From Cinclus cinclus (Eukaryota; Chordata; Aves; Passeriformes; Cinclidae), in assembly GCF_963662255.1 (NCBI RefSeq), contig NW_026912178.1, positions 2,108,001 through 2,172,000 of the forward strand: a stretch of 64,000 bases of DNA. The letters are read 5' to 3'. This document shows, piece by piece, positions 1 to 35,660 of the stretch. The notes below the pieces were generated by a model. It had not been told where the DNA came from. It saw only the letters and a program-made list of their open reading frames with translations, and did no database searches. Every line of letters begins with the position of its first letter. Position 1 is the first letter of the stretch. Made by a program: the position numbers and the translations under genes.

Positions 1-181
1 TGTGACCCAATGCAGGCTAACAATCTAATGATCCCTTGTGACACCAGGGTTTGTAAAAGGCCCAGTGTTGGAATGTTACAGCACGGGGACCAATAGAAGC
101 AAGGATCTATTATGCCACCATGGAGGCCAACCATCAAATGATTCATTGTGACATCAACTGGCCTAAAAGGGCATGGGATGC

Positions 182-218
182 ATTGTGACACCACAGAGGT
201 TAAGAGAAGCAAGGAACC
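182..218 (+). repeat. Sub-repeat A (37 bp)
   Basis: Starts ATTGTGACACCA and ends with AGAGAAGCAAGGAACC. Its right half matches that of D (ATAGAAGCAAGGA), which marks A and D as the first units of two related trimers. Variants across the window change the tail to AAACAAGGCACT, usually just before monomers of the AATAAA class. Confidence 0.85.
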
Positions 219-255
219 ATTGTGACCCAAGGGAGGCTAACAATCTAATGATCCC
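219..255 (+). repeat. Sub-repeat B (37 bp)
   Basis: Starts ATTGTGACCCAA and carries CTAACAATCTAATGATC, which resembles CCAAGAATCAAATGATTC in E. Four common versions differ just after GACCC: AATGCAGG, AAGGGAGG, AATGGAGG and AAAGCAGG. A rarer version with TAATAATCCCAGGAT appears near 21190, 31535, 52890, 57740 and 61265. Confidence 0.85.
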
Positions 256-292
256 TTGTGGCACCAGGGGGTATAAAAAGGCCCAGTGATGG
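256..292 (+). repeat. Sub-repeat C (36-37 bp), variable
   Basis: Starts TTGTGGCACCA and carries TATAAAAAGG plus CCAGTGATGG. Its right part matches F (CCTAAAAGGGCATGGGATG). C is one of the two most variable units. The stretch after the CCAGGG is GTATAAAAAG, TTGTAAAAG, TTGTAATAG, GCGCAAAAG, GCGTAAAAG or TTTGTAAAAG in different classes. The versions without GTATAAAAA are usually one base shorter, which is why monomers alternate between 220 and 221 bp. Confidence 0.85.
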
Positions 293-329
293 ATTGTTAC
301 AGCACGGGGACCAATAGAATCAAGGAACG
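293..329 (+). repeat. Sub-repeat D (36-37 bp), variable
   Basis: Starts ATTGTTACAGCACGGGG and continues ACCAATAGAATCAAGG. It pairs with A in sequence. It holds the most regularly retained CpG of the monomer (CACGGGG). Class versions include CCCAATAAAGACATGG, ACCTATAGAAGC, CACAATTAATCATGG, CCAATTAAAACCTGG and CCAATAGATACAAGG. Confidence 0.85.
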
Positions 330-365
330 ATTATGCCACCATGGAGGCCATGAATCCAATGATTC
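330..365 (+). repeat. Sub-repeat E (36 bp)
   Basis: Starts ATTATGCCACCATGGAGGCCA and ends with CAATGATTC; it pairs with B. It is one base shorter than the other units in nearly every monomer, giving the 221-bp total (5 x 37 + 36). In the AATAAA class the start becomes ATTATGACACCATAG. E is well conserved across the window apart from such class changes. Confidence 0.85.
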
Positions 366-368
366 ATT
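358..368. other. 11-bp dyad at the E/F boundary (example of a recurring site)
   Basis: AATGATTCATT has two 5-base arms that are exact reverse complements around a single central T. It lies across the join of E and F and is kept in most monomers, while the AATAAA class breaks the outer pair (AGTGATTCATT). The core TGATTCA differs by one base from the AP-1 site. It is too short for a stable hairpin; if it has a role, it would be as a protein site. Confidence 0.35.
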
Positions 369-402
369 GTGACATCAAGTGGCCTAAAAGGGCATGGGAT
401 GC
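366..402 (+). repeat. Sub-repeat F (37 bp)
   Basis: Starts ATTGTGACATCAAGTGG and ends CTAAAAGGGCATGGGATGC; it pairs with C. It is among the most constant units. Recurrent variants are GTAACACCAAGTGG, GTAAAATGAAGTGG, CCTTAAAGGGC and GGGCTTGGAATGC, which track particular monomer classes. Confidence 0.85.
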
Positions 403-622
403 ATTGTGACACCACAGGGGTTAAGAGAAACAAGGCACTATTGTGACCCAATGCAGGCTAACAATCTAATGATCCCTTGTGGCACCAGGGGTTGTAAAAG
501 GGCCAGGGATGAATTGTGAAAGAATGGGGCCCAATAAAGACATGGAAATATTATGACACCATAGAGGCCAAGAATCAAGTGATTCATTGTAACACCAAGT
601 GGCCTAAAAGGGCATGGGATGC
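403..622 (+). repeat. Representative 'AATAAA' class monomer (220 bp)
   Basis: C has GGGGTTGTAAAAGGG and D has GTGAAAGAATGGGGCCC followed by AATAAAGACATGG. E changes to ATTATGACACCATAG and F to ATTGTAACACCAAG. These changes travel together, so the class is a coherent lineage and not scattered mutation. It often alternates with TATA-class monomers in the first 20 kb. Confidence 0.85.
533..538 (+). promoter_or_regulatory. AATAAA poly(A)-signal-like hexamer in D (example)
   Basis: AATAAA is present in D of every AATAAA-class monomer (e.g. 533-538, and the AATAAAGACATGG of 1417 onward). It could act as a polyadenylation signal if the plus strand is transcribed. There is no clear GT-rich element that I would insist on downstream. 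Treat it as a sequence match only. Confidence 0.15.
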
Positions 623-667
623 ATTGTGACACCATAGAGGTTAAGAGAAGCAAGGAACCATTGAGAC

Positions 668-672
668 CCAAT
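668..672 (+). promoter_or_regulatory. CCAAT motif in B (example of a recurring site)
   Basis: CCAAT in the context GACCCAATGCAGG, 45 bp before the TATA-like motif at 713-720. A second CCAAT lies in D at 752-756 in the context GGACCAATAGA, close to the known NF-Y preference for purines before and after CCAAT. Function is not shown. Confidence 0.15.
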
Positions 673-712
673 GCAGGCTAACAATCTAATGATCCCTTGT
701 GGCACCACGGGG

Positions 713-720
713 TATAAAAA
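713..720 (+). promoter_or_regulatory. TATA-box-like motif in C (example of a recurring site)
   Basis: TATAAAAA in a G-rich setting (GGGG before, GGGCC after) fits the TATA-box consensus. It recurs in every TATA-class monomer, probably over a hundred times in the window. A CCAAT sits at 668-672, 45 bp upstream. Whether any copy drives transcription is unknown; the match alone is weak evidence, since it comes free with the repeat. Confidence 0.2.
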
Positions 721-1285
721 GGGCCAGTGATGGATTGTAACAGCACGGGGACCAATAGAAGCAAGGATCTATTATGCCACCATGGAGGCCAAGAATCAAA
801 TGATTCATTGTGACATCAAGTGGCCTAAAAGGGCATGGGATGGATTGTGACACCACAGGGGTTAAGAGAAGCAAGGAACCATTGAGACCCAAGGGAGGCT
901 AACAATCTAATGATCCCTTGTGGCACCAGGGGGTATAAAAAGGGCCAGGGATGGATTGTTACAGCACGGGGACCAATAGAAACAAGGATCTATTATGCCA
1001 CCATGGAGGCCAACCATCAAATGATTCATTGCGACATCAAGTGGCCTAAAAGGGCATGGGATGCATTTTGACACCACAGGGGTTAAGAGAATCAAGGAAC
1101 CATTGTGACCCAAGGGAGGCTAACAATCTAATGATCCCTTGTGGCACCAGGGGGTATAAAAAGGGCCAGGGAAGGATTGTTGTAGCACGGGGATCAATAG
1201 AAGCAAGGATCTATTATGCCACCATGGAGGCCAACCATCAAATGATTCATTGCGACATCAAGTGGCCTAAAAGGGCATGGACTGC

Positions 1286-3712
1286 ATTGTGACACCACAG
1301 GGGTTAAGAGAAACAAGGCACTATTGTGACCCAATGGAGGCTAACAATCTAATGATCCCTTGTGGCACCAGGGGTTGTAATAGGGCCAGGGATGAATTGT
1401 GAAAGCATGGGGCCCAATAAAGACATGGAAATATTATGACACCATAGAGGCCAAGAATCAAGTGATTCATTGTAACACCAAGTGGCCCAAAATGGCATGG
1501 GATGCATTGTGACAGCATAGAGGTTAAGAGAAGCAAGGAACCATTGAGACCCAATGCAGGCTAACAATCTAATGATCCCTTGTGGCACCAGGGGGTATAA
1601 AAAGGGCCAGGGATGGATTGTTACAGCACGGGGACCAATAGAAGCAAGGATCTATTATGCCACCATGGAGGCCAAGAATCAAATGATTCATTGTGACATC
1701 AAGTTGCCTAAAAGGGCATGGGATGCATTGTGACAGCATAGAGGTTAAGAGAAGCAAGGAAACATTTTGACCCAACGCAGGCTAACAATCTAATCATCCC
1801 TTGTGGCACCAGGGGGTATAAAAAGGGCCAGGGATGGATTGTTACAGCACGGGGACCAATAGAAGCAAGGATCTATTATGCCACCATGGAGGCCAACCAT
1901 CAAATGATTCATTGCGACATCAAGTGGCCTAAAAGGGCATGGGATGCATTTTGACACCACAGGGGTTAAGAGAAGCAAGGAACCATTGTGACCCACGGGA
2001 AGCTAACAATCTAATGATCCCTTGTGGCACCAGGGGGTATAAAAAGGTTCAGGGATGGATTGTTGTAGCACGGGGATCAATAGAAGCAAGGATCTATTAT
2101 GCCACCATGGAGGCCAACCATCAAATGATTCATTGTGACATCAAGTGGCCTAAAAGGGCATGGGATGCATTGTGACACCACAGAGGTTAAGAGAAGCAAG
2201 GAACCATTGTGACCCAATGCAGGCTAACAATCTAATGATCCCTTGTGACACCAGGGTTTGTAAAAGGCCCAGTGATGGAATGTTACAGCACGGGGACCAA
2301 TAGAAGCAAGGATCTATTATGCCACCATGGAGGCCAAGAATCAAATGATTCATTGTGACATCAAGTGGCCTAAAAGGACATGGGATGCATTGTGACAACA
2401 CAGGGGTTAAGAGAAGCAAGGAACCATTGTGACCCAAGGGAGGCTAACAATCTAATGATCCCTTGTGGCACCAGGGGGTATAAAAAGGCCCAGTGATGGA
2501 TTGTTACAGCACGGGGACCAATAGAATCAAGGAACGATTATGCCACCATGGAGGCCAAGAATCAAATGATTCATTGTAACATGAAGTGGCCAAAAAGTGC
2601 ATGGGATGCATTGTGACACCACAGGGGTTAAGAGAAGCAAGGAACCATTGTGACCCATTGGAGGCTATCAATCTAATGATCCCTTGTGGCACCAGGGGGT
2701 ATTAAAAGGGCCAGGGAAGGATTGTTGCAGCACGGGGATCAATAGAAGCAAGGATCTATTATGCCACCATGGAGGCCAAGAATCAAATGATTCATTGCGA
2801 CATCAAGTGGCCTAAAAGGGCATGGGATGCATTGTGACACCACAGGGGTTAAGAGAAACAAGGCACTATTGTGACCCAATGGAGGCTAACAATCTAATGA
2901 TCCCTTGTGGCACCAGGGGTTGTAAAAGGGCCAGGGATGAATTGTGAAAGCATGGGGCCCAATAAAGACATGGAAATATTATGACACCATAGAGGCCAAG
3001 AATCAAGTGATTCATTGTAACACCAAGTGGCCCAAAATGGCATGGGATGCATTGTGACACCATAGAGGTTAAGAGAAGCAAGGAACCATTGTGACCCAAT
3101 GCAGGCTAACAATCTAATGATCCCTTGTGGCACCAGGGGGTATAAAAAGGGCCAGTGATGGATTGTTACAGCACGGGGACCAATAGAAGCAAGGATCTAT
3201 TATGCCACCATGGAGGCCAAGTATCAAATGATTCATTGTGACATCAAGTGGCCTAAAAGGGCATGGGATGCATTGTGACACCACAGGGGTTAAGAGAAGC
3301 AAGGAACCATTGAGACCCAAGGGAGGCTAACCATCTAATGATCCCTTGTGGCACCAGGGGGTATAAAAAGGCCAGTGAGGGATTGTTACAGCACGGGGAC
3401 CAATAGAAGCAAGGATCTATTTTGCCACCATGGAGGCCAACCATCAAATGATTCATTGCGACATCAAGTGGCCTAAAAGGGCATGGGATGCATTGTGACA
3501 CCACAGGGGTTAAGAGAAGCAAGGAACCATTGTGACCCAATGCAGGCTAACAATCTAATGATCCCTTGTGACACCAGGGGGTATAAAAAGGTTCAGGGAT
3601 GGATTGTTGTAGCACGGGGACCAATAGAAGCAAGGATCTATTATGCCACCATGGAGGCCAAGAATCAAATGATTCATTGTGACATCAAGTGGCCTAAAAG
3701 GGCATGGGATGC
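1286..3712. repeat. 11-monomer block, copied at 14,077-16,503
   Basis: This 2,427-bp stretch (11 monomers) matches 14077-16503 at a constant offset of 12,791 bp. Shared private variants include the TTGTAATAGGG C unit (1376 and 14167), the ATTTTGACCCAACGCAGG B unit (near 1762 and 14553) and the GGACATGGG change in F (near 2357 and 15148). Beyond 3712 the two copies belong to different classes. Confidence 0.85.
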
Positions 3713-6700
3713 ATTTTGACACCACAGGGGTTAAGAGAAGCAAGGAACCATTGTGACCCAAGGGAGGCTAACAATCTAATGATCCCTTGTGGCACCAGGG
3801 GTTATAAAAATTGTCAGGGATGGATTGTTGTAGCACGGGGATCAATAGAAGCAAGGATCTATTATGCCACCATGGAGGCCAACCATCAAATGATTCATTG
3901 TGACATCAAGTGGCCTAAAAGGGCATGGGATGGATTGTGACACCACAGAGGTTAAGAGAAGCAAGGCACCATTGTGACCCAATGCAGGCTAACAATCTAA
4001 TGATCCCTTGTGACACCAGGGTTTGTAAAAGGCCCAGTGATGGATTGTTACAGCACGGGGACCAATAGAAGCAAGGATCTATTATGCCACCATGGAGGCC
4101 AACCATCAAATGATTCATTTTGACATCAAGTGTCCTAAAAGGGCATGGGATGCATTGTGACACCACAGGGGTTAAGAGAAACAAGGCACTATTGTGACCC
4201 AATGCAGGCTAACAATTTAATGATCCCTTGTGGCACCAGGGGTGGTAAAAGGGCCAGGGATGAATTGTGAAAGCATGGGGCGCAATAAAGACATGGAAAT
4301 ATTATGACACCATAGAGGCCAAGAATCAAGTGATTCATTGTAACACCAAGTGGCCTAAAAGGGCATGGGATGCATTGTGGCAGCACAGAGGTTAAGAGAA
4401 GCAAGGAACCATTGTGACCCAATGCAGGCTAACAATCTAATGATCCCTTGTGGCACCAGGGGGTATAAAAAGGGCCAGTGATGGATTGTTACAGCACGGG
4501 GACCAATAGAAGCAAGGATCTATTATGCCACCATGGAGGCCAAGAATCAAATGATTCATTGTGACATCAAGTTGCCTAAAAGGGCATGGGATGCATTGTG
4601 ACACCACAGGGGTTAAGAGAAGCAAGGAACAATTGTGACCCACGGGAGGCTAACAATCTAATGATCCCTTGTGACACCAGGGTTTGTAAAAGGGCCAGGG
4701 ATGAATTGTGAAAGCATGGGGCCCAATAAAGACATGGAAATATTATGACACCATAGAGGCCAAGAATCAAATGGTTCATTGTAACACCAAGTGGCCTAAA
4801 TGGGCATGGGATGCATTGTGACACCACTGAGGTTAAGAGAAGCAAGGAAACATTGTGACCCAATGTAGGCTAACAATCTAATGATCCCTTGTGGCACCAG
4901 AGGGTATAAAAAGGGTCAGGGATGGATTGTTACAGCACGGGGACCAATAGAAGCAAGGATCTATTATGCCACCATGGAGGCCAAGAATCAAATGATTCAT
5001 TGCGACATCAAGTGGCCTAAAAGGGCATGGGATGCATTTTGACACCACAGGGGTTAAGAGAAGCAAGGAACCATTGTGACCCACGGGAGGCTAACAATCT
5101 AATGATCCCTTGTGGCACCAGGGGGTATAAAAAGGGTCAGGGAGGGATTGTTACAGCACTGGGACCAATAGAACAAAGGATCTATTATGCCACCATGGTA
5201 GCCAAGAATCAAATGATTCATTGTGACATCAAGTGGCCTAAAAGGGCATGGGATGCATTGTGACACCACAGAGGTTAAGAGAAGCAAGGCACCAGTGTTA
5301 CCCAAGGGAGGCTAACAATCTAATGATCCCTTGTGACACCAGGGTTTGTAAAAGGCCCAGTGATGGAATGTTACAGCACGGGGACCAATAGAAGCAAGGA
5401 TCTATTATGCCACCATGGAGGCCAACCATCAAATGATTCATTGTGACATCAAGTGGCCTAAAAGGGCATGGGATGCATTGTGACACCACAGGGGTTAAGA
5501 GAAGCAAGGAACCATTGTGACCCAAGGGAGGCTAACAATCTAATGATCCCTTGTGACACCAGGGTTTGTAAAAGGCCCAGTGATGGAATGTTACAGCGCG
5601 GGGACCAATAGAAGCAAGGATCTATTATGCCACCATGGAGGCCAAGAATCAAATGATTCATTGTGACATCAAGTGGCCTAAAAGGGCATGGGATGCATTG
5701 TGACACCACAGAGGTTAAGAGAAGCAAGGCACTATTGTGACCCAATGCAGGCTAACAATCTAATGATCCCTTGTGGCACCAGGGGTGGTAAAAGGGCCAG
5801 GGATGAATTGTGAAAGCATGGGGCCCAATAAAGACATGGAAATATTATGACACCATAGAGGCCAAGAATCAAGTGATTCATTGTAACACCAAGTGGCCTA
5901 AAAGGGCATGGGATGCATTGTGGCAGCACAGAGGTTAAGAGAAGCAAGGAACCATTGTGACCCAATGCAGGCTAACAATCTAATGATCCCTTGTGGCACC
6001 AGGGTGTATAAAAAGGCCAGTGATGGATTGTTACAGCACGGGGACCAATAGAAGCAAGGATCTATTATGCCACCATGGAGGCCAACCATCAAATGATTCA
6101 TTGCGACATCAAGTGGCCTAAAAGGGCATGGGATGCATTTTGACACCACTGGGGTTAAGAGAAGCAAGGAACCATTGTGACCCAAGGGAGGCTAACAATC
6201 TAATGATCCCTTGTGGCACCAGGGGTTATAAAAATTGTCAGGGATGGATTGTTGTAGCACGGGGATCAATAGAAGCAAGGATCTATTATGCCACCATGGA
6301 GGCCAACCATCAAATGATTCATTGTGACATCAAGTGGCCTAAAAGGGCATGGGATGGATTGTGACACCACAGAGGTTAAGAGAAGCAAGGCACCATTGTG
6401 ACCCAATGCAGGCTAACAATCTAATGATCCCTTGTGACACCAGGGTTTGTAAAAGGCCCAGTGATGGATTGTTACAGCACGGGGACCAATAGAAGCAAGG
6501 ATCTATTATGCCACCATGGAGGCCAACCATCAAATGATTCATTTTGACATCAAGTGTCCTAAAAGGGCATGGGATGCATTGTGACACCACAGGGGTTAAG
6601 AGAAGCAAGGAACCATTGTGACCCAAGGGAGGCTAACAATCTAATGATTCCTTGTGGCACCAGGGGGTATAAAAAGGGCCAGGGATGGATTGTTCCAGCA

Positions 6701-7680
6701 CGGGGACCAATAGAAGCAAGGATCGATTATGCCACCATGGAGGCCAAGTATCAAATGATTCATTGTGACATCAAGTGGCCTAAAAGGGCATGGGATGCAT
6801 TGTGACACCACAGGGGTTAAGAGAAGCAAGGAACCATTGTGACCCAAGGGAGGCTAACAATCTAATGATCCCTTGTGGCACCAGGGGGTATAAAAAGGTT
6901 CAGGGATGGATTGTTGTAGCACGGGGACCAATAGAAGCAAGGATCTATTATGCCACCATGGAGGCCAAGAATCAAATGATTCATTGTGACATCAAGTGGC
7001 CGAAAAGGGCATGGGATGCATTGTGACACCACAGGGGTTAAGAGAAACAAGGCACTATTGTGACCCAATGCAGGCTAACAATCTAATGATCCCTTGTGGC
7101 ACCAGGGGTGGTAAAAGGGCCAGGGATGAATTGTGAAAGCATGGGGCCCAATAAAGACATGGAAATATTATGACACCATAGAGGCCAAGAATCAAGTGAT
7201 TCATTGTAACACCAAGTGGCCTAAAAGGGCATGGGATGCATTGTGGCAGCACAGAGGTTAAGAGAAGCAAGGAACCATTGTGACCCAATGCAGGCTAACA
7301 ATCTAATGATCCCTTGTGGCACCAGGGTTTGTAAAAGGGCCAGGGATGAATTGTGAAAGCATGGGGCCCAATAAAGACATGGAAATATTATGACACCATA
7401 GAGGCCACGAATCAAATGGTTCATTGTAACACCAAGTGGCCTAAAAGGGCATGGGATGCATTGTTACACCACTGAGGTTAAGAGAAGCAAGGAAACATTG
7501 TGACCCAATGTAGGCTAACAATCTAATGATCCCTTGTGGCACCAGAGGGTATAAAAAGGGCCAGGGATGGATTGTTACAGCACGGGGACCAATAGAAGCA
7601 AGGATCTATTATGCCACCATGGAGGCCAAGAATCAAATGATTCATTGCGACATCAAGTGGCCTAAAAGGGCATGGGATGC

Positions 7681-8640
7681 ATTTTGACACCACAGGGGTT
7701 AAGAGAAGCAAGGAACCATTGTGACCCACGGGAGGCTAACAATCTAATGATCCCTTGTGGCACCAGGGGGTATAAAAAGGGTCAGGGAGGGATTGTTACA
7801 GCACTGGGACCAATAGAATCAAGGATCTATTATGCCACCATGGAGGCCAAGAATCAAATGATTCATTGTGACATCAAGTGGCCTAAAAGGGCATGGGATG
7901 CATTGTGACACCACAGAGGTTAAGAGAAGCAAGGCACCAGTGTTACCCAAGGGAGGCTAACAATCTAATGATCCCTTGTGACACCAGGGTTTGTAAAAGG
8001 CCCAGTGATGGAATGTTACAGCACGGGGACCAATAGAAGCAAGGATCTATTATGCCACCATGGAGGCCAACCATCAAATGATTCATTGTGACATCAAGTG
8101 GCCTAAAAGGGCATGGGATGCATTGTGACACCACAGGGGTTAAGAGAAGCAAGGAACCATTGTGACCCATTGGAGGCTATCAATCTAATGACCCCTTGTG
8201 GCACCAGGGGGTATAAAAAGGGCCAGGGATGGATTGTTGTAGCACGGGGATCAATAGAAGCAAGGATCTATTATGCCACCATGGAGGCCAACCATCAAAT
8301 GATTCATTGTGACATCAAGTGGCCTAAAAGGGCATGGGATGCATTGTGACACCACAGGGGTTAAGAGAAACAAGGCACTATTGTGACCCAATGCAGGCTA
8401 ACAATCTAATGATCCCTTGTGGCACCAGGGGTTGTAAAAGGGCCAGGGATGAATTGTGAAAGCATGGGGCCCAATAAAGACATGGAAATATTATGACACC
8501 ATAGAGGCCAAGAATCAAGTGATTCATTGTAACACCAAGTGGCCTAAAATGGCATGGGATGCATTGTGACATCATAGAGGTTAAGAGAAGCAAGGAACCA
8601 TTGAGACCCAATGCAGGCTAACAATCTAATGATCCCTTGT
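7681..8640. repeat. 8-monomer-offset duplication, copy 1
   Basis: Matches 9446 to about 10405 at offset 1,765 bp (8 monomers). Both copies carry the GGGAGGGATTGTTACAGCAC and CACTGGGACC variants and the CACCAGTGTTACCC A/B junction. Part of the same group (from 5036) occurs a further 2,645 bp upstream. Confidence 0.8.
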
Positions 8641-9445
8641 GGCACCAGGGGGTATAAAAAGGGCCAGTGATGGATTGTTACAGCACGGGGACCAATAGAA
8701 GCAAGGATCGATTATGCCACCATGGAGGCCAAGAATCAAATGATTCATTGTGACATCAAGTGGCCTAAAAGGGCATGGGATGCATTGTGACACCACAGGG
8801 GTTAAGAGAAGCAAGGAACCATTGTGACCCAAGGGAGGCTAACCATCTAATGATCCCTTGTGGCACCAGGGGGTATAAAAAGGGCCAGGGATGGATTGTT
8901 ACAGCACGGGGACCAATAGAAGCAAGGATCTATTATGCCACCATGGAGGCCAACCATCAAATGATTCATTGCGACATCAAGTGGCCTAAAAGGGCATGGG
9001 ATGCATTTTGACACCACAGGGGTTAAGAGAAGCAAGGAACCATTGTGACCCAAGGGAGGCTAACAATCTAATGATCCCTTGTGGCACCAGGGTGTATAAA
9101 AAGGATCAGGGATGGATTGTTGTAGCACGGGGATCAATAGAAGCAAGGATCTATTATGCCACCATGGAGGCCAACCATCAAATGATTCATTGTGACATCA
9201 AGTGGCCTAAAAGGGCATGGGATGCATTGTGACACCACAGAGGTTAAGAGAAGCAAGGAACCATTGTGACCCAATGCAGGCTAACAATCTAATGATCCCT
9301 TGTGACACCAGGGTTTGTAAAAGGCCCAGTGATGGAATGTTACAGCACGGGGACCAATAGAAGCAAGGATGGATTATGCCACCATGGAGGCCAACCATCA
9401 AATGATTCATTGTGACATCAAGTGGCCTAAAAGGGCATGGGATGC

Positions 9446-10405
9446 ATTGTGACACCACAGGGGTTAAGAGAAGCAAGGAACCATTGTGACCCACGGGAGG
9501 CTAACAATCTAATGATCCCTTGTGGCACCAGGGGGTATAAAAAGGGTCAGGGAGGGATTGTTACAGCACTGGGACCAATAGAATCAAGGATCTATTATGC
9601 CACCATGGAGGCCAAGAATCAAATGATTCATTGTGACATCAAGTGGCCTAAAAGGGCATGGGATGCATTGTGACACCACAGAGGTTAAGAGAAGCAAGGC
9701 ACCAGTGTTACCCAAGGGAGGCTAACAATCTAATGATCCCTTGTGACACCAGGGTTTGTAAAAGGCCCAGTGATGGAATGTTACAGCACGGGGACCAATA
9801 GAAGCAAGGATCTATTATGCCACCATGGAGGCCAACCATCAAATGATTCATTGTGACATCAAGTGGCCTAAAAGGGCATGGGATGCATTGTGACACCACA
9901 GGGGTTAAGAGAAGCAAGGAACCATTGTGACCCAAGGGAGGCTATCAATCTAATGACCCCTTGTGGCACCAGGGGGTATAAAAAGGGCCAGGGATGGATT
10001 GTTGTAGCACGGGGAGCAATAGAAGCAAGGATCTATTATGCCACCATGGAGGCCAACCATCAAATGATTCATTGTGACATCAAGTGGCCTAAAAGGGCAT
10101 GGGATGCATTGTGACACCACAGGGGTTAAGAGAAACAAGGCACTATTGTGACCCAATGCAGGCTAACAATCTAATGATCCCATGTGGCACCAGGGGTTGT
10201 AAAAGGGCCAGGGATGAATTGTGAAAGCATGGGGCCCAATAAAGACATGGAAATATTATGACACCATAGAGGACAAGAATCAAGTGATTCATTGTAACAC
10301 CAAGTGGCCTAAAATGGCATGGGATGCATTGTGACATCATAGAGGTTAAGAGAAGCAAGGAACCATTGAGACCCAATGCAGGCTAACAATCTAATGATCC
10401 CTTGT
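9446..10405. repeat. 8-monomer-offset duplication, copy 2
   Basis: Partner of 7681-8640. The copies part at about 10405, where this one switches to the TTTGTAAAAGGCCC class while copy 1 continues with a TATA-class monomer. Confidence 0.78.
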
Positions 10406-12312
10406 GACACCAGGGTTTGTAAAAGGCCCAGTGATGGAATGTTACAGCGCGGGGACCAATAGAAGCAAGGATCTATTATGCCACCATGGAGGCCAAGAAT
10501 CAAATGATTCATTGTGACATCAAGTGGCCTAAAAGGGCATGGGATGCATTGTGACACCACAGGGGTTAAGAGAAGCAAGGAACCATTGTGACCCAAGGGA
10601 GGCTAACAATCTAATGATCCCTTGTGGCACCAGGGGGTATAAAAAGGGTCAGGGATGGATTGTTACAGCACGGGGACCAATAGAATCAAGGAACGATTAT
10701 GCCACCATGGAGGCCTACCATCAAATGATTCATTGTGACATCAAGTGGCCTAAAAGGGCATGGGATGCATTGTGACACCACAGGGGTTAAGAGAAGCAAG
10801 GAACCATTGTGACCCATTGGAGGCTATCAATCTAATGACCCCTTGTGGCACCAGGGGGTATAAAAAGGGCCAGGGATGGATTGTTGTAGCACGGGGAGCA
10901 ATAGAAGCAAGGATCTATTATGCCACCATGGAGGCCAAGAATCAAATGATTCATTGTGACATCAAGTGGCCTAAAAGGGCATGGGATGCATTTTGACACC
11001 ACAGGGGTTAAGAGAAGCAAGGAACCATTGAGACCCAAGGGAGGCTAAAAATCTAATGATCCCTTGTGGCACCAGGGGTTGTAAAAGGGCCAGGGATGAA
11101 TTGTGAAAGCATGGGGCCCAATAAAGACATGGAAATATTATGACACCATAGAGGCCAAGAATCAAGTGATTCATTGTAACACCAAGTGGCCTAAAAGGGC
11201 ATGGGATGCATTGTGACACCATAGAGGGTAAGAGAAGCAAGGAACCATTGTGACCCAATGCAGGCTAACAATCTAATGATCCCTTGTGGCACCAGGGGGT
11301 ATAAAAAGGGCCAGGGATGGATTTTTACAGCACGGGGACCAATAGAAGCAAGGATCGATTATGCCACCATGGAGGCCAACCATCAAATGATTCATTGCGA
11401 CATCAAGTGGCCTAAAAGGGCATGGGATGCATTGTGACATCACAGGGGTTAAGAGAATCAAGGAACCATTGTGACCCAAGGGAGGCTAACAATCTAATGA
11501 TCCCTTGTGGCACCAGGGGGTATAAAAAGGCCCAGTGATGGATTGTTACAGCACGGGGACCAATAGAATCAAGGAACGATTATGCCACCATGGAGGCCAA
11601 GAATCCAATGATTCATTGTGACATCAAGTGGCCTAAAAGGGCATGGGATGCATTGTGACACCACAGGGGTTAAGAGAAACAAGGCACTATTGTGACCCAA
11701 TGGAGGCTAACAATCTAATGATCCCTTGTGGCACCAGGGGTTGTAAAAGGGCCAGGGATGAATTGTGAAAGCATGGGGCCCAATAAAGACATGGAAATAT
11801 TATGACACCATAGAGGCCAAGAATCAAGTGATTCATTGTAACACCAAGTGGCCCAAAATGGCATGGGATGCATTGTGACACCATAGAGGTTAAGAGAAGC
11901 AAGGAACCATTGAGACCCAATGCAGGCTAACAATCTAATGATCCCTTGTGGCACCAGGGGGTATAAAAAGGGCCAGTGATGGATTGTTACAGCACGGGGA
12001 CCAATAGAAGCAAGGATCTATTATGCCACCATGGAGGCCAAGTATCAAATGATTCATTGTGACATCAAGTGGCCTAAAAGGGCATGGGATGCATTGTGAC
12101 ACCACAGGGGTTAAGAGAAGCAAGGAACCATTGAGACCCAAGGGAGGCTAACCATCTAATGATCCCTTGTGGCACCAGGGGGTATAAAAAGGCCAGTGAT
12201 GGATTGTTACAGCACGGGGACCAATAGAAGCAAGGATCTATTATGCCACCATGGAGGCCAAGAATCAAATGATTCATTGCGACATCAAGTGGCCTAAAAG
12301 GGCATGGGATGC

Positions 12313-13194
12313 ATTTTGACACCTCAGGGGTTAAGAGAAGCAAGGAACCATTGTGACCCAAGGGAGGCTAACAATCTAATGATCCCTTGTGGCACCAGGG
12401 GTGGTAAAAGGGCCAGGGATGAATTGTGAAAGCATGGGGCACAATAAAGACATGGAAATATTATGACACCATAGAGGCCAAGAATCAAGTGATTCATTGT
12501 AACACCAAGTGGCCTAAAAGGGCATGGGATGCATTGTGACAGCATAGAGGTTAAGAGAAGCAAGGAACCATTGTGACCCAATGCAGGCTAACAATCTAAT
12601 GATCCCTTGTGGCACCAGGGGGTATAAAAAGTGTCAGGGATGGATTGTTGTAGCACGGGGAACAATAGAAGCAAGGATCTATTATGCCACCATGGAGGCC
12701 AACCATCAAATGATTCATTGTGACATAAAGTGGCCTAAAAGGGCATGGGATGCATTGTGACACCACAGGGGTTAAGAGAAACAAGGCACTATTGTGACCC
12801 AATGCAGGCTAACAATCTAATGATCCCTTGTGGCACCAGGGGTGGTAAAAGGGCCAGGGATGAATTGTGAAAGCATGGGGCACAATAAAGACATGGAAAT
12901 ATTATGACACCATAGAGGCCAAGAATCAAGTGATTCATTGTAACACCAAGTGGCCTAAAAGGGCATGGGATGCATTGTGACAGCATAGAGGTTAAGAGAA
13001 GCAAGGAACCATTGTGACCCAATGCAGGCTAACAATCTAATGATCCCTTGTGGCACCAGGGGGTATAAAAAGTGTCAGGGATGGATTGTTGTAGCACGGG
13101 GAACAATAGAAGCAAGGATCTATTATGCCACCATGGAGGCCAACCATCAAATGATTCATTGTGACATCAAGTGGACTAAAAGGGCATGGGATGC
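12313..13194. repeat. Tandem dimer, two copies of 441 bp
   Basis: 12313-12753 and 12754-13194 are two copies of an AATAAA-class plus TATA-class monomer pair. Both share GTGGTAAAAGGGCC, GGGGCACAATAAAG and TATAAAAAGTGTCAGGG. The homologous place at 16945-17385 (offset 4,632) has only one copy. The flanks to the right then align at 4,191, and the difference is exactly 441 bp. Confidence 0.85.
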
Positions 13195-14076
13195 ATTGTG
13201 ACACCACAGGGGTTAAGAGAAACAAGGCACTATTGTGACCCAATGCAGGCTAACAATCTAATGATCCCTTGTGGCACCAGGGGTGGTAAAAGGGCCAGGG
13301 ATAAATTCTGAAAGCATGGGGCCCAATAAAGACATGGAAATATTATGACACCTTGGAGGCCAAGAATCAAGTGATTCATTGTAACACCAAGTGGCCTAAA
13401 AGGGCATGGGATGCATTGTGACACCATAGAGGTTAAGAGAAGCAAGGAACCATTGTGACCCAATGCAGGCTAACAATCTAATGATCCCTTGTGGCACCAG
13501 GGGGTATAAAAAGGGCCAGTGATGGATTGTTACAGCACGGGGACCAATAGAAGCAAGGATCTATTATGCCACCATGGAGGCCAAGAATCAAATGATTCAT
13601 TGTGACATAAAGTGGCCTAAAAGGGCATGGGATGCATTGTGACACCACAGGGGTTAAGAGAAGCAAGGAATCATTGTGACCCAATGCAGGCTAACAATCT
13701 AATGATCCCTTGTGACACCAGGGTTTGTAAAAGGCCCAGTGTTGGAATGTTACAGCACGGGGACCAATAGAAGCAAGGATCTATTATGCCACCATGGAGG
13801 CCAACCATCAAATGATTCATTGTGACATCAAGTGGCCTAAAAGGGCATGGGATGCATTGTGACACCACAGAGGTTAAGAGAAGCAAGGAACCATTGTGAC
13901 CCAAGGGAGGCTAACAATCTAATGATCCCTTGTGGCACCAGGGGGTATAAAAAGGCCCAGTGATGGATTGTTACAGCACGGGGACCAATAGAATCAAGGA
14001 ACGATTATGCCACCATGGAGGCCATGAATCCAATGATTCATTGTGACATCAAGTGGCCTAAAAGGGCATGGGATGC

Positions 14077-16503
14077 ATTGTGACACCACAGGGGTTAAGA
14101 GAAACAAGGCACTATTGTGACCCAATGGAGGCTAACAATCTAATGATCCCTTGTGGCACCAGGGGTTGTAATAGGGCCAGGGATGAATTGTGAAAGCATG
14201 GGGCCCAATAAAGACATGGAAATATTATGACACCATAGAGGCCAAGAATCAAGTGATTCATTGTAACACCAAGTGGCCCAAAATGGCATGGGATGCATTG
14301 TGACAGCATAGAGGTTAAGAGAAGCAAGGAACCATTGAGACCCAATGCAGGCTAACAATCTAATGATCCCTTGTGGCACCAGGGGGTATAAAAAGGGCCA
14401 GGGATGGATTGTTACAGCACGGGGACCAATAGAAGCAAGGATCTATTATGCCACCATGGAGGCCAAGAATCAAATGATTCATTGTGACATCAAGTTGCCT
14501 AAAAGGGCATGGGATGCATTGTGACAGCATAGAGGTTAAGAGAAGCAAGGAAACATTTTGACCCAACGCAGGCTAACAATCTAATCATCCCTTGTGGCAC
14601 CAGGGGGTATAAAAAGGGCCAGGGATGGATTGTTACAGCACGGGGACCAATAGAAGCAAGGATCTATTATGCCACCATGGAGGCCAACCATCAAATGATT
14701 CATTGCGACATCAAGTGGCCTAAAAGGGCATGGGATGCATTTTGACACCACAGGGGTTAAGAGAAGCAAGGAACCATTGTGACCCACGGGAAGCTAACAA
14801 TCTAATGATCCCTTGTGGCACCAGGGGGTATAAAAAGGTTCAGGGATGGATTGTTGTAGCACGGGGATCAATAGAAGCAAGGATCTATTATGCCACCATG
14901 GAGGCCAACCATCAAATGATTCATTGTGACATCAAGTGGCCTAAAAGGGCATGGGATGCATTGTGACACCACAGAGGTTAAGAGAAGCAAGGAACCATTG
15001 TGACCCAATGCAGGCTAACAATCTAATGATCCCTTGTGACACCAGGGTTTGTAAAAGGCCCAGTGATGGAATGTTACAGCACGGGGACCAATAGAAGCAA
15101 GGATCTATTATGCCACCATGGAGGCCAAGAATCAAATGATTCATTGTGACATCAAGTGGCCTAAAAGGACATGGGATGCATTGTGACAACACAGGGGTTA
15201 AGAGAAGCAAGGAACCATTGTGACCCAAGGGAGGCTAACAATCTAATGATCCCTTGTGGCACCAGGGGGTATAAAAAGGCCCAGTGATGGATTGTTACAG
15301 CACGGGGACCAATAGAATCAAGGAACGATTATGCCACCATGGAGGCCAAGAATCAAATGATTCATTGTAACATGAAGTGGCCAAAAAGTGCATGGGATGC
15401 ATTGTGACACCACAGGGGTTAAGAGAAGCAAGGAACCATTGTGACCCATTGGAGGCTATCAATCTAATGATCCCTTGTGGCACCAGGGGGTATTAAAAGG
15501 GCCAGGGAAGGATTGTTGCAGCACGGGGATCAATAGAAGCAAGGATCTATTATGCCACCATGGAGGCCAAGAATCAAATGATTCATTGTGACATCAAGTG
15601 GCCTAAAAGGGCATGGGATGCATTGTGACACCACAGGGGTTAAGAGAAACAAGGCACTATTGTGACCCAATGGAGGCTAACAATCTAATGATCCCTTGTG
15701 GCACCAGGGGTTGTAAAAGGGCCAGGGATGAATTGTGAAAGCATGGGGCCCAATAAAGACATGGAAATATTATGACACCATAGAGGCCAAGAATCAAGTG
15801 ATTCATTGTAACACCAAGTGGCCCAAAATGGCATGGGATGCATTGTGACACCATAGAGGTTAAGAGAAGCAAGGAACCATTGTGACCCAATGCAGGCTAA
15901 CAATCTAATGATCCCTTGTGGCACCAGGGGGTATAAAAAGGGCCAGGGATGGATTGTTACAGCACGGGGACCAATAGAAGCAAGGATCTATTATGCCACC
16001 ATGGAGGCCAAGTATCAAATGATTCATTGTGACATCAAGTGGCCTAAAAGGGCATGGGATGCATTGTGACACCACAGGGGTTAAGAGAAGCAAGGAACCA
16101 TTGAGACCCAAGGGAGGCTAACCATCTAATGATCCCTTGTGGCACCAGGGGGTATAAAAAGGCCAGTGAGGGATTGTTACAGCACGGGGACCAATAGAAG
16201 CAAGGATCTATTATGCCACCATGGAGGCCAACCATCAAATGATTCATTGCGACATCAAGTGGCCTAAAAGGGCATGGGATGCATTTTGACACCACAGGGG
16301 TTAAGAGAAGCAAGGAACCATTGTGACCCAATGCAGGCTAACAATCTAATGATCCCTTGTGACACCAGGGGGTATAAAAAGGTTCAGGGATGGATTGTTG
16401 TAGCACGGGGACCAATAGAAGCAAGGATCTATTATGCCACCATGGAGGCCAAGAATCAAATGATTCATTGTGACATCAAGTGGCCTAAAAGGGCATGGGA
16501 TGC
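14077..16503. repeat. Second copy of the 11-monomer block
   Basis: Partner of 1286-3712. It differs by scattered single bases, for example TTGTGACATC at about 15588 where the first copy has TTGCGACATC near 2797. The sequence to its left (13675-14076) matches 1-402, so the four monomers 403-1285 are absent from this copy. Confidence 0.85.
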
Positions 16504-19500
16504 ATTGTGACACCACAGGGGTTAAGAGAAACAAGGCACTATTGGGACCCAAGGGAGGCTAACAATCTAATGATCCCTTGTGGCACCAGGGGTGGTAAAA
16601 GGGCCAGGGATGAATTTTGAAAGCATGGGGCCCAATAAAGCCATGGAAATATTATGACACCATAGAGGCCAAGAATCAAGTGATTCATTGTAACACCAAG
16701 TGGCCTAAAAGGGCATGGGATGCATTGTGACAGCACAGAGGTTAAGAGAAGCAAGGAACCATTGTGACCCAAAGGAGGCTAACAATCTAATGATCCCTTG
16801 TGGCACCAGGGGGTATAAAAAGGGCCAGGGATGGATTGTTACAGCACGGGGACCAATAGAAGCAAGGATCTATTATGCCACCATGGAGGCCAAGAATCAA
16901 ATGATTCATTGCGACATCAAGTGGCCTAAAAGGGCATGGGATGCATTTTGACACCTCAGGGGTTAAGAGAAGCAAGGAACCATTGTGACCCAAGGGAGGC
17001 TAACAATCTAATGATCCCTTGTGGCACCAGGGGTGGTAAAAGGGCCAGGGATGAATTGTGAAAGCATGGGGCACAATAAAGACATGGAAATATTATGACA
17101 CCATAGAGGCCAAGAATCAAGTGATTCATTGTAACACCAAGTGGCCTAAAAGGGCATGGGATGCATTGTGACAGCATAGAGGTTAAGAGAAGCAAGGAAC
17201 CATTGTGACCCAATGCAGGCTAACAATCTAATGATCCCTTGTGGCACCAGGGGGTATAAAAAGTGTCAGGGATGGATTGTTGTAGCACGGGGACCAATAG
17301 AAGCAAGGATCTATTATGCCACCATGGAGGCCAACCATCAAATGATTCATTGTGACATCAAGTGGCCTAAAAGGGCATGGGATGCATTGTGACACCACAG
17401 GGGTTAAGAGAAACAAGGCACTATTGTGACCCAATGCAGGCTAACAATCTAATGATCCCTTGTGGCACCAGGGGTGGTAAAAGGGCCAGGGATAAATTCT
17501 GAAAGCATGGGGCCCAATAAAGACATGGAAATATTATGACACCTTGGAGGCCAAGAATCAAGTGATTCATTGTAACACCAAGTGGCCTAAAAGGGCATGG
17601 GATGCATTGTGACACCACAGAGGTTAAGAGAAGCAAGGAACCATTGTGACCCAATGCAGGCTAACAATCTAATGATCCCTTGTGGCACCAGGGGGTATAA
17701 AAAGGGCCAGTGATGGATTGTTACAGCACGGGGACCAATAGAAGCAAGGATCTATTATGCCACCATGGAGGCCAAGAATCAAATGATTCATTGTGACATA
17801 AAGTGGCCTAAAAGGGCATGGGATGCATTGTGACACCACAGGGGTTAAGAGAAGCAAGGAATCATTGTGACCCAATGCAGGCTAACAATCTAATGATCCC
17901 TTGTGACACCAGGGTTTGTAAAAGGCCCAGTGATGGAATGTTACAGCACGGGGACCAATAGAAGCAAGGATCTATTATGCCACCATGGAGGCCAAGAATC
18001 AAATGATTCATTGTGACATCAAGTGGCCTAAAAGGGCATGGGATGCATTGTGACACCACAGAGGTTAAGAGAAGCAAGGAACCATTGTGACCCAAGGGAG
18101 GCTAACAATCTAATGATCCCTTGTGGCACCAGGGGGTATAAAAAGGCCCAGTGATGGATTGTTACAGCACGGGGACCAATAGAATCAAGGAATGATTATG
18201 CCACCATGGAGGCCATGAATCCAATGATTCATTGTAACATGAAGTGGCCAAAAAGTGCATGGGATGCATTGTGACACCACAGGGGTTAAGAGAAACAAGG
18301 CACTATTGTGACCCAATGCAGGCTAACAATCTAATGATCCCTTGTGGCACCAGGGGTTGTAAAAGGGCCAGGGATGAATTGTGAAAGCATGGGGCCCAAT
18401 AAAGACATGGAAATATTATGACACCATAGAGGCCAAGAATCAAGTGATTCATTGTAACACCAAGTGGCCTAAAAGGGCATGGGATGCATTGTGACACCAT
18501 AGAGGTTAAGAGAAGCAAGGAAACATTGAGACCCAATGCAGGCTAACAATCTAATGATCCCTTGTGGAACCACGGGGTATAAAAAGGGCCAGTGATGGAT
18601 TGTAACAGCACGGGGACCAATAGTAGCTAGGATCTATTATGCCACCATGGAGGCCAAGAATCAAATGATTCATTGTGACATCAAGTGGCCTAAAAGGGCA
18701 AGGGATGGATTGTGACACCACAGGGGTTAAGAGAAGCAAGGAACCATTGAGACCCAAGGGAGGCTAACAATCTAATGATCCCTTGTGGCACCAGGGGGTA
18801 TAAAAAGGGCCAGTGATGGATTGTTACAGCACGGGGACCAATAGAAACAAGGATCTATTATGCCACCATGGAGGCCAACCATCAAATGATTCATTGCGAC
18901 ATCAAGTGGCCTAAAAGGGCATGGGATGCATTTTGACACCACAGGGGTTAAGAGAAGCAAGAAACCATTGTGACCCAAGGGAGGCTAACAATCTAATGAT
19001 CCCTTGTGGCACCAGGGCGTATAAAAAGGGTCAGGGATGGATTGTTGTAGCACGGGGACCAATAGAAGCAAGGATCTATTATGCCACCATGGAGGCCAAC
19101 CATCAAATGATTCATTGTGACATCAAGTGGCCTAAAAGGGCATGGGATGCATTGTGACACCACAGGGGTTAAGAGAAACAAGGCACTATTGTGACCCAAT
19201 GCAGGCTAACAATCTAATGATCCCTTGTGGCACCAGGGGTGGTAAAAGGGCCAGGGATGAATTGTGAAAGCATGGGGCCCAATAAAGACATGGAAATATT
19301 ATGGCACCATAGAGGCCAAGAATCAAGTGATTCATTGTAACACCAAGTGGCCTAAAAGGGCATGGGATACATTGTGACACCATAGAGGGTAAGAGAAGCA
19401 AGGAATCATTGAGACCCAATGCAGGCTAACAATCTAATGATCCCTTGTGGCACCAGGGTTTGTAAAAGGCCCAGTGATGGATTGTTACAGCACGGGGACC

Positions 19501-22500
19501 AATAGAAGCAAGGATCTATTATGCCACCATGGAGGCCAAGAATCAAATGATTCATTGTGACATCAAGTGGCCTAAAAGTGCATGGGATGCACTGTGACAC
19601 CACAGGGGTTAAGAGAAGCAAGGAACCATTGTGACCCAAGGGAGGCTAACAATCTAATGGTCCCTTGTGACACCAGGGGTTGTAAAAGGGCCAGGGATGG
19701 ATTGTTACAGCACGGGGACCAATACAAGCAAGGATCTATTATGCCACCATGGAGGCCAACCATCAAATGATTCATTGCGACATCAAGTGGCCTAAAAGGG
19801 CATGGGATGCATTTTGACACCACAGGGGTTAAGAGAAGCAAGGAACCATTGTGACCCAATGCAGGCTAACAATCTAATGATCCCTTGTGGCACCAGGGGG
19901 TATAAAAAGGGCCAGGGATGGATTGTTGTAGCACGGGGATCAATAGATGCAAGGATCTATTATGCCACCATGGAGGCCAACCATCAAATGATTCATTGTG
20001 ACATCAAGTGGCCTAAAAGTGCATGGGATGCATTGTGACACCACAGGAGTTAAGAGAAACAAGGCACTATGTTGACCCAATGCAGGCTAACAGTCTAATG
20101 ATCCCTTGTGGCACCAGGGGTTGTAAAAGGGGCAGGGATGAATTGTGAAAGAATGGGGCCCAATAAAGGCATGGAAATATTATGACACCATAGAGGCCAA
20201 GAATCAAATGATTCATTGTAACATCAAGTGGCCTAAAAGGGCATGGGATGCATTGTGACAGCATAGAGGTTAAGAGAAGCAAGGAACCATTGTGACCCAA
20301 TGCAGGCTAACAATCTAATGATCCCTTGTGGCACCAGGGGGTATAAAAAGTGTCAGGGATGGATTGTTGTAGCACGGGGACCAATAGAAGCAAGGATCTA
20401 TTATGCCACCATGGAGGCCAAGAATCAAATGTTTCATTGCGACATCAAGTGGCCTAAAAGGGCATGGGATGCATTTTGACACCACAGGGGTTAAGAGAAG
20501 CAAGGAACCATTGTGACCCAATGCAGGCTAACAATCTAATGATCCCTTGTGGCACCAGGGGGTATAAAAAGGGCCAGTGATGGATTGTTGCAGAACGGGG
20601 ACCAATAGAAGCAAGGATCTATTATGCCACCATGGAGGCCACGAATCAAATGATTCATTGCGACATGAAGTGGCCTAAAAGGGCATGGGATGCATTTTGA
20701 CACCATAGTTGCTACGAGAATCAAGGAACCATTGTGACCCAATGCAGGCTAAAAATCTAATGATCCCTGTTGACACCAGGGGTTGTAATAGGGCCAGGGA
20801 TGAATTGTGGAAGCATGGGGCCCAATAAAGACATGGAAATATTATGACACCATGGAGGCCAAGAATCAAATGATTCATTGTAACACCAAGTGGACTAAAA
20901 GGGCATGGGATGCATTGTGACACCACAGAGGTTAAGAGAAGCAAGGAACCATTGTGACCCAATGCAGGCTAACAATCTAATGATCCCTTGTCACACAAGG
21001 TGTTGTAAAAGGGCCAGGGATGAATTGTGAAAGCATGGGGCCCAATAGAAGCAAGGATCTATTATGCCACCATGGAGGCCAAGAATCAAATGATTCATTG
21101 TGACATCAAGTGGCCTAAAAGGGCATGGGATGCATTGTGACACCACAGGGGTTAAGAGAAGCAAGGATCCATTGTGACCCAATGGAGGGTAATAATCCCA
21201 GGATGCCATTTGACACCAGGGGGCGTAAAAGGGCCAGGGATGAATTGTGACAGCATGGGGCCCAATAGAAACAAGGAACCATTATGCCACCATGGAGGCC
21301 AAGAATCAAATGATTCATTGTGACATCAAGTGGCCTAAAAGGGCATGGGATGCATTGTGACACCACTGAGGTTAAGAGAAACAAGGCACTATTGTGACCC
21401 AATGCAGGCTAACAATCTAATGATCCCTTGTGACACCAGGGTTTGTAAAAGGCCCAGTGATGGAATGTTACAGCACGGGGACCAATAGAAGCAAGGATCT
21501 ATTTTGCCACCATGGAGGCCAAGAATCAAATGATTCATTGTGACATCAAGTGGCCTAAAAGGGCATGGGATGCATTGTGACACCACAGAGGTTAAGAGAA
21601 GCAAGGAACCATTGTGACCCAAGGGAGGCTAACAATCTAATGATCCCTTATGGCACCAGGGGGTATAAAAAGCGTCAGGGATGGATTGTTACAGCACGGG
21701 GACCAATAGAATCAAGGATCTATTATGCCACCATGGAGGCCAAGAATCAAATGATTCATTGTAAAATGAAGTGGCCAAAAAGTGCATGGGATGCATTGTG
21801 ACACCACAGGTGTTAAGAGAAGCAAGGAACAATTGTGACCCAATGGAGGTTATCAATCTAATGACCCCTTGTGGCACCAGGGGATATTAAAAGGGCCAGG
21901 GATGGATTGTTGTAGCACGGGGACCAATAGAAGCAAGGATCTATTATGCCACCATGGAGGCCAACCATCAAATGATTCATTGTGACATCAAGTGGCCTAA
22001 AAGGGCATGGGATGCATTGTGACACCACAGGGGTTAAGAGAAACAAGGCACTATTTTGACCCAAGGGAGGCTAACAATCTAATGATCCCTTGTGACACCA
22101 GGGGTTGTAATAGGGCCAGGGATGAATTGTGACAGCATGGGGCCCAATAGAAACAAGGAGCGATTATGCCACCATCGAGGCCAAGAATCAAGTGATTCAT
22201 TGTAACACCAAGTGGCCTAAAAGGGCATGGGATGCATTGTGACACCATAGAGGTTAAGAGCAGCAAGGAGCCATTGAGAACCAAAGCAGGCTAACAATCT
22301 AATGATCCCTTGTGGCACCAGGGGGTTTAAAAAGGTCCAGAGATGGATTGTTACAGCACGGGGACCAATAGAAGCAAGGATCTATTATGCCACCATGAAG
22401 GCCAAGAATCAAATGATTCATTGCGACATGAAGTGGCCTAAAAGGGCATGGGATGCATTTTGACACCACAGGGGCTACGAGAATCAAGGAACCATTGTGA

Positions 22501-22580
22501 CCCAATGCAGGCTAAAAATCTAATGATCCCTGTTGACACCAGGGGTTGTAATAGGGCCAGGGATGAATTGTGGAAGCATG

Positions 22581-35440: not shown

Positions 35441-35660
35441 ATTGTGACACCACAGGGGTTAAGAGAAGCAAGGAACCATTGTGACCCAATGCAGGCTAAC
35501 TATCTAAGAATCCCTTTTGACACCAGGGGGCGCAAAAGGACCACGGATGAACTGTGACAGCATGGGGACCTATAGAAGCAAGGATCTATTATGACACCAT
35601 GAAGGCCAAGAATCAAATGATTCATTGTGACATCAAGTGGCCTAAAAGGGCTTGGGATGC
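35441..35660 (+). repeat. Representative 'GCGCAAAAG' class monomer (220 bp)
   Basis: C reads GGGGGCGCAAAAGGACCACGG and D reads CTGTGACAGCATGGGG then ACCTATAGAAGC. B usually has TCTAAGAATCCC just upstream. I see this class only from about 24.5 kb onward. It is a main component of the 7.7-7.9-kb units between 33.5 and 52 kb. It also brings a GCGC pair of CpG-type steps not found in the TATA class. Confidence 0.82.

What the first reader, a model, noticed from the sequence alone, without database searches (positions are those of the whole stretch)
182..402. The 221-bp monomer is a doubled trimer of a 37-bp ancestor
Six units of 37, 37, 37, 37, 36 and 37 bp each start with a form of ATTGTGACACCA. 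The tails pair up three apart: A with D (AGAGAAGCAAGGA / ATAGAAGCAAGGA), B with E (CTAACAATCTAATGATC / CCAAGAATCAAATGATTC), C with F (TATAAAAAGGGCCAGGGATG / CCTAAAAGGGCATGGGATG). The simplest history is 37 bp, then a 111-bp trimer, then a 221-bp double trimer, then higher-order units. This gives four visible levels of amplification in one array.
Basis: seen in the sequence. Interest (0 to 1): 0.75.

Follow-up and report, generated by a model that had tools for sequence, protein, structure and literature searches.

The report
Songbird satellite built in nested steps
A huge tandem repeat in what looks like a songbird genome was built from a 37-base unit, then a block of three, then two such blocks, and older layers found at two other places in the genome still show earlier stages; the kind of process is known, but this record of it is unusually readable.

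Summary
The 64-kb window is wholly one satellite array, 292 monomers or partial monomers of mostly 220/221 bp, each of six ~37-bp units. B-E and C-F are firm (98 and 91% bootstrap); A-D is not (51% by NJ; no clade by ML). Corrections: units are 37, 36, 37/38, 37, 36, 37; the trimer lag is 110, not 111; the window shows no regular higher-order unit but local block duplications of up to 31 monomers. New here: a genome search with the majority 37-mer led to one array edge and one layer boundary where 37 bp is the strongest lag, 36-bp type-2 units already precede type 3, and (at the edge) trimers stand in non-alternating order. Host: a bird, by RAG1 most likely a passerine. Family size by extrapolation ~44 Mb, 3.8% of the assembly. 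A new member of a known kind (layered higher-order satellite, like alpha satellite); history largely supported; centromere role untested.

The parts
1..64000 (+). one continuous satellite array, 292 monomers or partial monomers, mostly 220/221 bp; the stretch fetched directly after the window (L018) is the same satellite
   Evidence: TRF 290.5 copies; cyclic profile alignment; L018 and other probes of the contig
182..218 (+). unit A, 37 bp (type 1)
219..254 (+). unit B, 36 bp (type 2)
   Evidence: 36 bp in 285 of 288 monomers
255..292 (+). unit C, 38 bp in this copy, 37 in 189 of 288 (type 3)
293..329 (+). unit D, 37 bp (type 1)
330..365 (+). unit E, 36 bp (type 2)
   Evidence: 36 bp in 288 of 288 monomers
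366..402 (+). unit F, 37 bp (type 3)
25561..25800 (+). half monomer: about 111 bases missing, C start runs into F end (jumps at 25619-25624), giving ABC ABC order; exchange in the trimer register
27211..27450 (+). second, nearly identical copy of that half-monomer junction (jumps at 27270-27275), probably carried by a block duplication
52037..52055 (+). the same C-to-F jump, returning from F to C after about 18 bases: a conversion-like patch without loss of length
   Evidence: piece w6, 4037-4055, plus 48000
35221..42046 (+). 31-monomer block, repeated at 42928-49753 (lag 7707 bp), 99.4% identical
1286..3712 (+). 11-monomer block, repeated at 14077-16503 (lag 12791 bp), 99.8% identical
55699..58339 (+). 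12-monomer block, repeated at 59221-61862 (lag 3522 bp), 99.1% identical

Best explanation
It is a hierarchical satellite, most likely of a songbird, that grew by repeated capture and amplification. A 37-bp tandem array diversified into several unit types; three neighbours (types 1-2-3, the middle one already 36 bp) were captured and spread as a 110-bp trimer; two trimers, after a first divergence, became the 220/221-bp monomer ABCDEF, which spread over many contigs; blocks of several to 31 monomers were later duplicated locally. Mechanism (inferred): unequal exchange or conversion favours the best-matching register, so once units within a block differ, further exchange moves by whole blocks and the next level up is born. 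Role (inferred, untested): centromeric or pericentromeric heterochromatin.
For: Pairing three apart. Shared 36-bp length of B and E. Lag ladder 37/110/220. Identity ladder: units one or two apart 0.63-0.64, three apart 0.74, monomers 0.887 on average, nearest relative in the window 0.991 median, the four longest duplicated blocks 0.991-0.998. Jumps inside the monomer in the window and 16 further 10-kb array stretches: apart from a 27-column jump at the very start of L012 and a 213-column jump in L030, all lie in or sum to the trimer register, C to F or A to D. L085: lag 37 strongest (0.529), canonical order only from base 2644. L084: a non-satellite stretch, then degenerate 37-mers, then mixed types, then trimers in the order EF ABC DEF DEF ABC DEF DEF ABC DEF ABC DEF ABC. 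In the older layer of L085, 22 of 34 typed transitions follow 1>2>3>1 (0 of 5000 shuffles as high), and 7 of 7 typed followers of 36-bp units are type 3. Older-layer states divide the B/E and C/F differences between both partners. Block duplication: 18 runs of 4 or more monomers at 96% and over, against 0.05 on average in 20 shuffled orders.
Against: A-D is weak. Older layers were read at two places only, 3.1 kb each, cut because they match the majority 37-mer best, so not a random sample; only L084 shows a true array edge. Part of the L085 older layer is itself repeated 2177 bp on, so its counts are not all independent. In L084 the older zone alone shows 5 of 12 cyclic transitions (469 of 5000 shuffles as high). 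The non-alternating trimers in L084 could be later losses of ABC rather than a relic. Independent exchange events are few (perhaps 2-3). No CENP-A data.
Confidence: 0.8

Rival explanations
1. The six-unit monomer was captured at once from an old 37-mer array that already held two diverged trimers side by side; no fresh doubling of one trimer took place.
For: Each of the six units has at least one older-layer unit nearer to it on the tree than its partner (for E only just, 0.27 against 0.29); A-like and D-like states are weakly linked among older units (246 of 5000 shuffles as high); six-unit and ten-unit periods already occur in the older layer of L085 (TRF 221 and 370).
Against: For B/E and C/F there is no linkage of states among older units (2928 and 3177 of 5000 shuffles as high) and each partner carries its own apparently derived changes, as after a doubling; nearness to older units is expected if those sit near the ancestor.
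Confidence: 0.3
2. The three-apart likeness is not old: ongoing conversion in the trimer register keeps A like D, B like E and C like F.
For: C-F and A-D patches exist.
Against: Such events are few in the 224 kb examined, several of them copies of one event; partners still differ at 9-10 of 36-37 sites; B is 36 bp in 285 and E in 288 of 288 monomers. It also presupposes a trimer register.
Confidence: 0.08
3. The 37-bp layers are decayed ABCDEF monomers, not ancestors.
For: In L084 they lie at an array edge, where decay is expected.
Against: Point decay does not change the order of units; these zones hold unit types outside A-F and lack the ABCDEF order, and 37 is the top lag of both loci.
Confidence: 0.08

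Closest known systems
Primate alpha satellite (higher-order arrays with layered monomeric flanks)
   Same: Multi-unit repeats; younger, more homogeneous arrays inside, divergent monomeric layers outside (passages of PMC9859433).
   Different: Founding unit 37 bp, not 171 bp; nested levels inside the 221-bp monomer; bird genome; kinetochore binding unknown; 0 matches of the CENP-B box pattern on the + strand of the window.
Cervid and bovine satellite I with 31-bp subrepeats
   Same: A long monomer made of diverged short subrepeats; subrepeats at one position are more alike between species than subrepeats within one monomer (passages of PMC7835801).
   Different: 31-bp subrepeats, 18-21 per monomer of about 0.9 kb; here 36-38 bp, six per monomer, with a trimer level. 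Sequences not compared.
Songbird satellitome of Turdus leucomelas (TleSat01-1220 and others)
   Same: Major tandem repeats of a passerine; one pair (TleSat02-145 / TleSat05-21) is described as a higher-order relation (PMC11375038 section 5).
   Different: None of the ten listed repeat lengths is 37, 110, 220/221 or 1377; sequences not compared.
Galliform 41-42-bp repeats (CNM, PO41), recalled, from no call
   Same: Short founding unit in birds.
   Different: 41-42 bp against 36-38 bp here; sequences not compared.

Membership tests
Satellite DNA | Head-to-tail array of many similar copies over 100 kb or more | tested here: met
   Window wholly array; every probe of contig C187 from base 1 to 2.46 Mb is this satellite; between probes not read
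Higher-order satellite of the alpha type | Units within a repeat more diverged than whole repeats from each other | tested here: met
   0.63-0.74 within against 0.887 between monomers
Higher-order satellite of the alpha type | Older, less ordered layers beside the ordered core | tested here: met
   One edge (L084) and one layer boundary (L085) read; other arrays not read at their edges
Higher-order satellite of the alpha type | Regular multi-monomer unit above the 221-bp level | tested here: not met
   No fixed offset stands out in the window; a two-monomer period does in L015 (lag 440, 0.91)
Primate alpha satellite proper | 171-bp alphoid monomer | tested here: not met
   220/221 bp of 36-38-bp units
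Functional centromere repeat | Binds CENP-A / kinetochore | not testable with these tools
   No chromatin data held
Cervid satellite I | 31-bp subrepeat | tested here: not met
   Units are 36-38 bp in nearly all copies
Galliform 41-bp repeats (recalled) | 41-42-bp unit | tested here: not met
   Unit lengths; sequences not compared

The most novel reading that the evidence does not exclude
This is the main centromeric repeat of a songbird, shared by large and small chromosomes, and it evolved in layers just as primate alpha satellite did but independently and from a 37-bp founder, keeping founder, trimer, double-trimer and block-duplication stages in one genome.
Probability: 0.4. Interest if true: 0.6.

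Novelty: new member of a known kind. Interest (0 to 1): 0.42.

Why it matters
How satellite arrays climb from short to long repeat units is usually inferred from the end product. Here intermediate stages appear to survive in the same genome, so the order of events and the rule 'exchange follows the best-matching register' can be tested on sequence. It also describes a repeat that, by extrapolation, makes up about 4% of a bird assembly, and a second 1377-bp satellite beside it.

Tried and rejected
Genome-wide count of non-alternating trimer junctions by 28-base patterns: abandoned. At one mismatch the patterns gave 6 F-to-D and 1 C-to-A hits in the window, where the alignment shows no F-to-D neighbours, and at two mismatches 32 and 125; they do not tell the junctions apart. 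Abundance from the 22-mer: dropped, because its density in the stretches I hold (23 in 224 kb) is uneven and gave an absurd 217 Mb; the 32-mer was used instead. First tree and shuffle test with a 38-bp C unit gave weaker support (AD/BE/CF best in 1432 of 2000 bootstraps, 1 of 20,000 shuffles as high); repeated with the commoner 37-bp form (2893 of 3000, 0 of 50,000), and without the gap column. Sub-repeats inside the majority 37-mer: no evidence (947 of 2000 shuffles as high). Rfam: no match over the gathering scores. COX1 search to name the host: no match. Six 13-17-base pieces of the repeat in the paper library: ten papers held one of them (the 13-base piece), by their titles unrelated; only listings seen. 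Paper searches (listings and starts of abstracts seen) showed me no description of this satellite; supplements were not searched, and the library holds only open-licence papers. Passages of PMC8687609 and PMC10234393 gave no repeat lengths to compare.

Idea not followed: 220.5 bp is 21 turns of 10.5 bp; probably chance.

After the first try at handing in, I mended: 'gene-rich' contigs (genes were not tested), 'array edges' (one of the two loci is only a layer boundary), the gap column in the shuffle test, and the host (passerine by taxonomy; 'oscine' is recalled). Confidence in the best explanation went from 0.82 to 0.80 because only one true edge was read; that in the third rival from 0.07 to 0.08.

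Full report
What was checked. The window is G000:C187:2108001-2172000 of a 1,170,691,195-base assembly in 277 contigs. All 64 kb are one tandem array, period 220/221. I aligned the window to a cyclic 221-column profile and got 292 monomers or partial monomers, commonest lengths 220 (163) and 221 (102); column identity to the consensus averages 0.92.

The six units. Cut at the ATTGTGAC-like starts, the consensus gives A 37, B 36, C 38 (37 in most copies), D 37, E 36, F 37. Identical sites of 37 (the gap shared by B and E counted as one): BE 28, CF 28, AD 27, next CD 24, down to BC 17. Characters shared by one pair alone: BE 7 (the gap included), CF 6, AD 4, and DE, AE, AF 1 each. Without the gap column BE is 27 of 36 and the shuffle result stands (82 of 108 cells, null 65.0 +/- 3.0, 0 of 50,000). 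NJ bootstrap of 3000: BE 0.995, CF 0.956, AD 0.51, next AC 0.017. ML with 200 bootstraps: BE 98, CF 91, and a short branch placing D beside CF with 56, so A-D is unresolved. All 15 pairings were scored; A-D, B-E, C-F came first, and in 2893 of 3000 bootstraps.

Periods. Lag identities: 37 0.467, 73 0.452, 74 0.357, 110 0.595, 111 0.366, 147 0.426, 148 0.330, 183 0.421, 220 0.636, 221 0.511, 441 0.577; mean over lags 1-6000 0.264, sd 0.029. The predicted trimer excess is there, at 110.

Above the monomer. No fixed multi-monomer period: the best offset (35 monomers, of 1-119 tried) averages 0.900 against 0.887 overall. Instead there are 18 runs of at least four monomers at 96% and over; 20 shuffles of monomer order gave 0.05 on average. 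The longest is 31 monomers at lag 7707 bp, 99.4% identical. Elsewhere local periods appear, for example 440 bp (0.91) in L015.

Register of exchange. In the window and 16 further 10-kb array stretches I listed jumps of more than 5 columns. The half monomer at 25.6 kb and its copy at 27.3 kb lose about 111 bases from C to F; the same junction, returning from F to C, is at one place in the window (about 52.04 kb) and three in L025; L012 has a C-to-F and an A-to-D jump, plus a 27-column jump at its very start that I take for an end effect; L030 has one jump of 213 columns, not in the trimer register. Some junctions are split into steps of 74 and 37, or 38, 36 and 37, that sum to 111. So most exchanges inside the monomer run in the trimer register, but independent events are few, perhaps two or three.

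Older layers. The majority 37-mer of the six consensuses, three times over, was searched in the genome; 40 of 1635 candidates were scored, and the 139 matches listed lie on C22, C23, C37, C194, C17, C7, C20 and C252, none on the window's contig. Two loci were cut. L085 (C22): strongest lag 37 (0.529), then 221 (0.499), 74 (0.498) and 111 (0.482); the canonical order begins at base 2644. It is a boundary between layers; whether the array ends nearby was not seen. L084 (C23, read on the reverse strand) does show an edge: about 480 bases that I recognise from memory as CR1-like, then degenerate 37-mers, then mixed types from 949, then from 1834 the order EF ABC DEF DEF ABC DEF DEF ABC DEF ABC DEF ABC; its strongest lags are 37 (0.457) and 110 (0.451). 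Typing units 1 (A/D), 2 (B/E), 3 (C/F), with uncertain ones left blank: L085 older zone 22 of 34 transitions cyclic (0 of 5000 shuffles as high); L084 older zone 5 of 12 (469 of 5000), not significant alone; inner zones 34 of 34 and 12 of 12. In the L085 older zone 8 of 10 units of 36 bp are type 2 (2 untyped), and 7 of 7 typed followers are type 3 (2 further followers untyped, one unit at the end of the zone). Part of that zone is repeated 2177 bp on, so these counts are not all independent. Taken together the trimer order and its 36-bp middle unit appear to predate the 221-bp monomer.

One doubling, or two trimers already apart? Among 84 distinct older units, sites that differ between partners were scored. 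B/E (10 units) and C/F (16 units) show no linkage (2928 and 3177 of 5000 shuffles as high), and the commoner older state is sometimes B's, sometimes E's (likewise C and F): two branches from one ancestor. A/D (58 units) shows weak linkage (246 of 5000). On the tree each unit has older units nearer than its partner, which fits either view. I favour doubling, with some prior A-D difference possible.

Host. 5S rRNA genes, 34 of the 37 scored matches in one cluster on C13 (sequence); globin exons, of which L033 is closest, after six fused chains, to chains labelled alpha-A and L037, likewise after six fused chains, to hemoglobin D; RAG1 98.9% identical over 639 residues to a Lamprotornis superbus record (Passeriformes, Sturnidae) against 95.6% over 661 residues of the same part for Dromas ardeola (Charadriiformes). 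Over the full length Dromas scores best (91.6%), because the Lamprotornis record lacks a part. The protein database is clustered at 90%, so this says passerine, not species or family.

Extent. A 32-mer of the F-A junction with up to 2 mismatches occurs 97,860 + 86,173 times, reversed control 0; in 224 kb of array held here it occurs 263 + 674 times. That extrapolates to about 44 Mb, 3.8% of the assembly. The 100 places listed lie on C6 (107 Mb) and C7 (71-72 Mb); the list (22-mer) names many more contigs. On C63 probes run from non-satellite sequence, mostly GC-rich (1 to 0.32 Mb), into this satellite (0.325-0.6 Mb), a 1377-bp satellite (0.8-1.0 Mb) and this satellite again (1.2-4.03 Mb); on C35 the 1377-bp satellite (2.55-2.9 Mb) precedes this one (2.95-3.79 Mb, minus strand); C187 is this satellite to 2.46 Mb and the 1377-bp one at 2.5 Mb. 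Probes are points, not full readings; genes were not sought there.

Known kinds. Layered higher-order arrays are established for primate alpha satellite (passages of PMC9859433), and long monomers of diverged short subrepeats for deer and cattle satellite I (passages of PMC7835801). The Turdus leucomelas satellitome lists lengths of 21 to 1644 bp, none matching (PMC11375038 section 5). A preprint passage says that 94% of recurrent satellite families were restricted to a single species (PMC13320880, passages). This is a new member of a known kind, with an unusually complete set of stages.

Noticed in passing
L020, L024 and probes on C187 (2.5-2.57 Mb), C63 (0.8-1.0 Mb), C35 (2.55-2.9 Mb): A second satellite of about 1377 bp, GC about 0.56; probes 91.6-99.3% identical to a copy in L020, no strong internal period, beside the 220-bp arrays on all three contigs probed.
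   Followed up: partly
L085 26-2643: The older layer holds recurrent unit types outside A-F, local periods of 184, 221 and 370 bp, and a stretch repeated at 2177 bp: an older, different higher-order arrangement.
   Followed up: partly
L084, reverse strand, about 1-486: The array edge abuts a stretch that I recognise from memory as CR1-like; the first 37-mers beside it look the most degenerate. Possible birthplace of the 37-mer, untested.
   Followed up: no
window 1-64000: CpG observed/expected 0.105, suggesting long methylation.
   Followed up: no
G000:C17 about 754-760 kb: Hits of a D-like 22-mer exactly 110 bp apart at three places, hinting at neighbouring DEF trimers on another contig too.
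   Followed up: no
contigs C187 and C63: Lengths are round (2,575,000 and 4,028,000), which may point to an assembly or gap-size convention; C35 (3,794,658) is not.
   Followed up: no
G000:C13 19.73-19.74 Mb: Tandem 5S rRNA genes with spacings of 395 or 414 bp.
   Followed up: no
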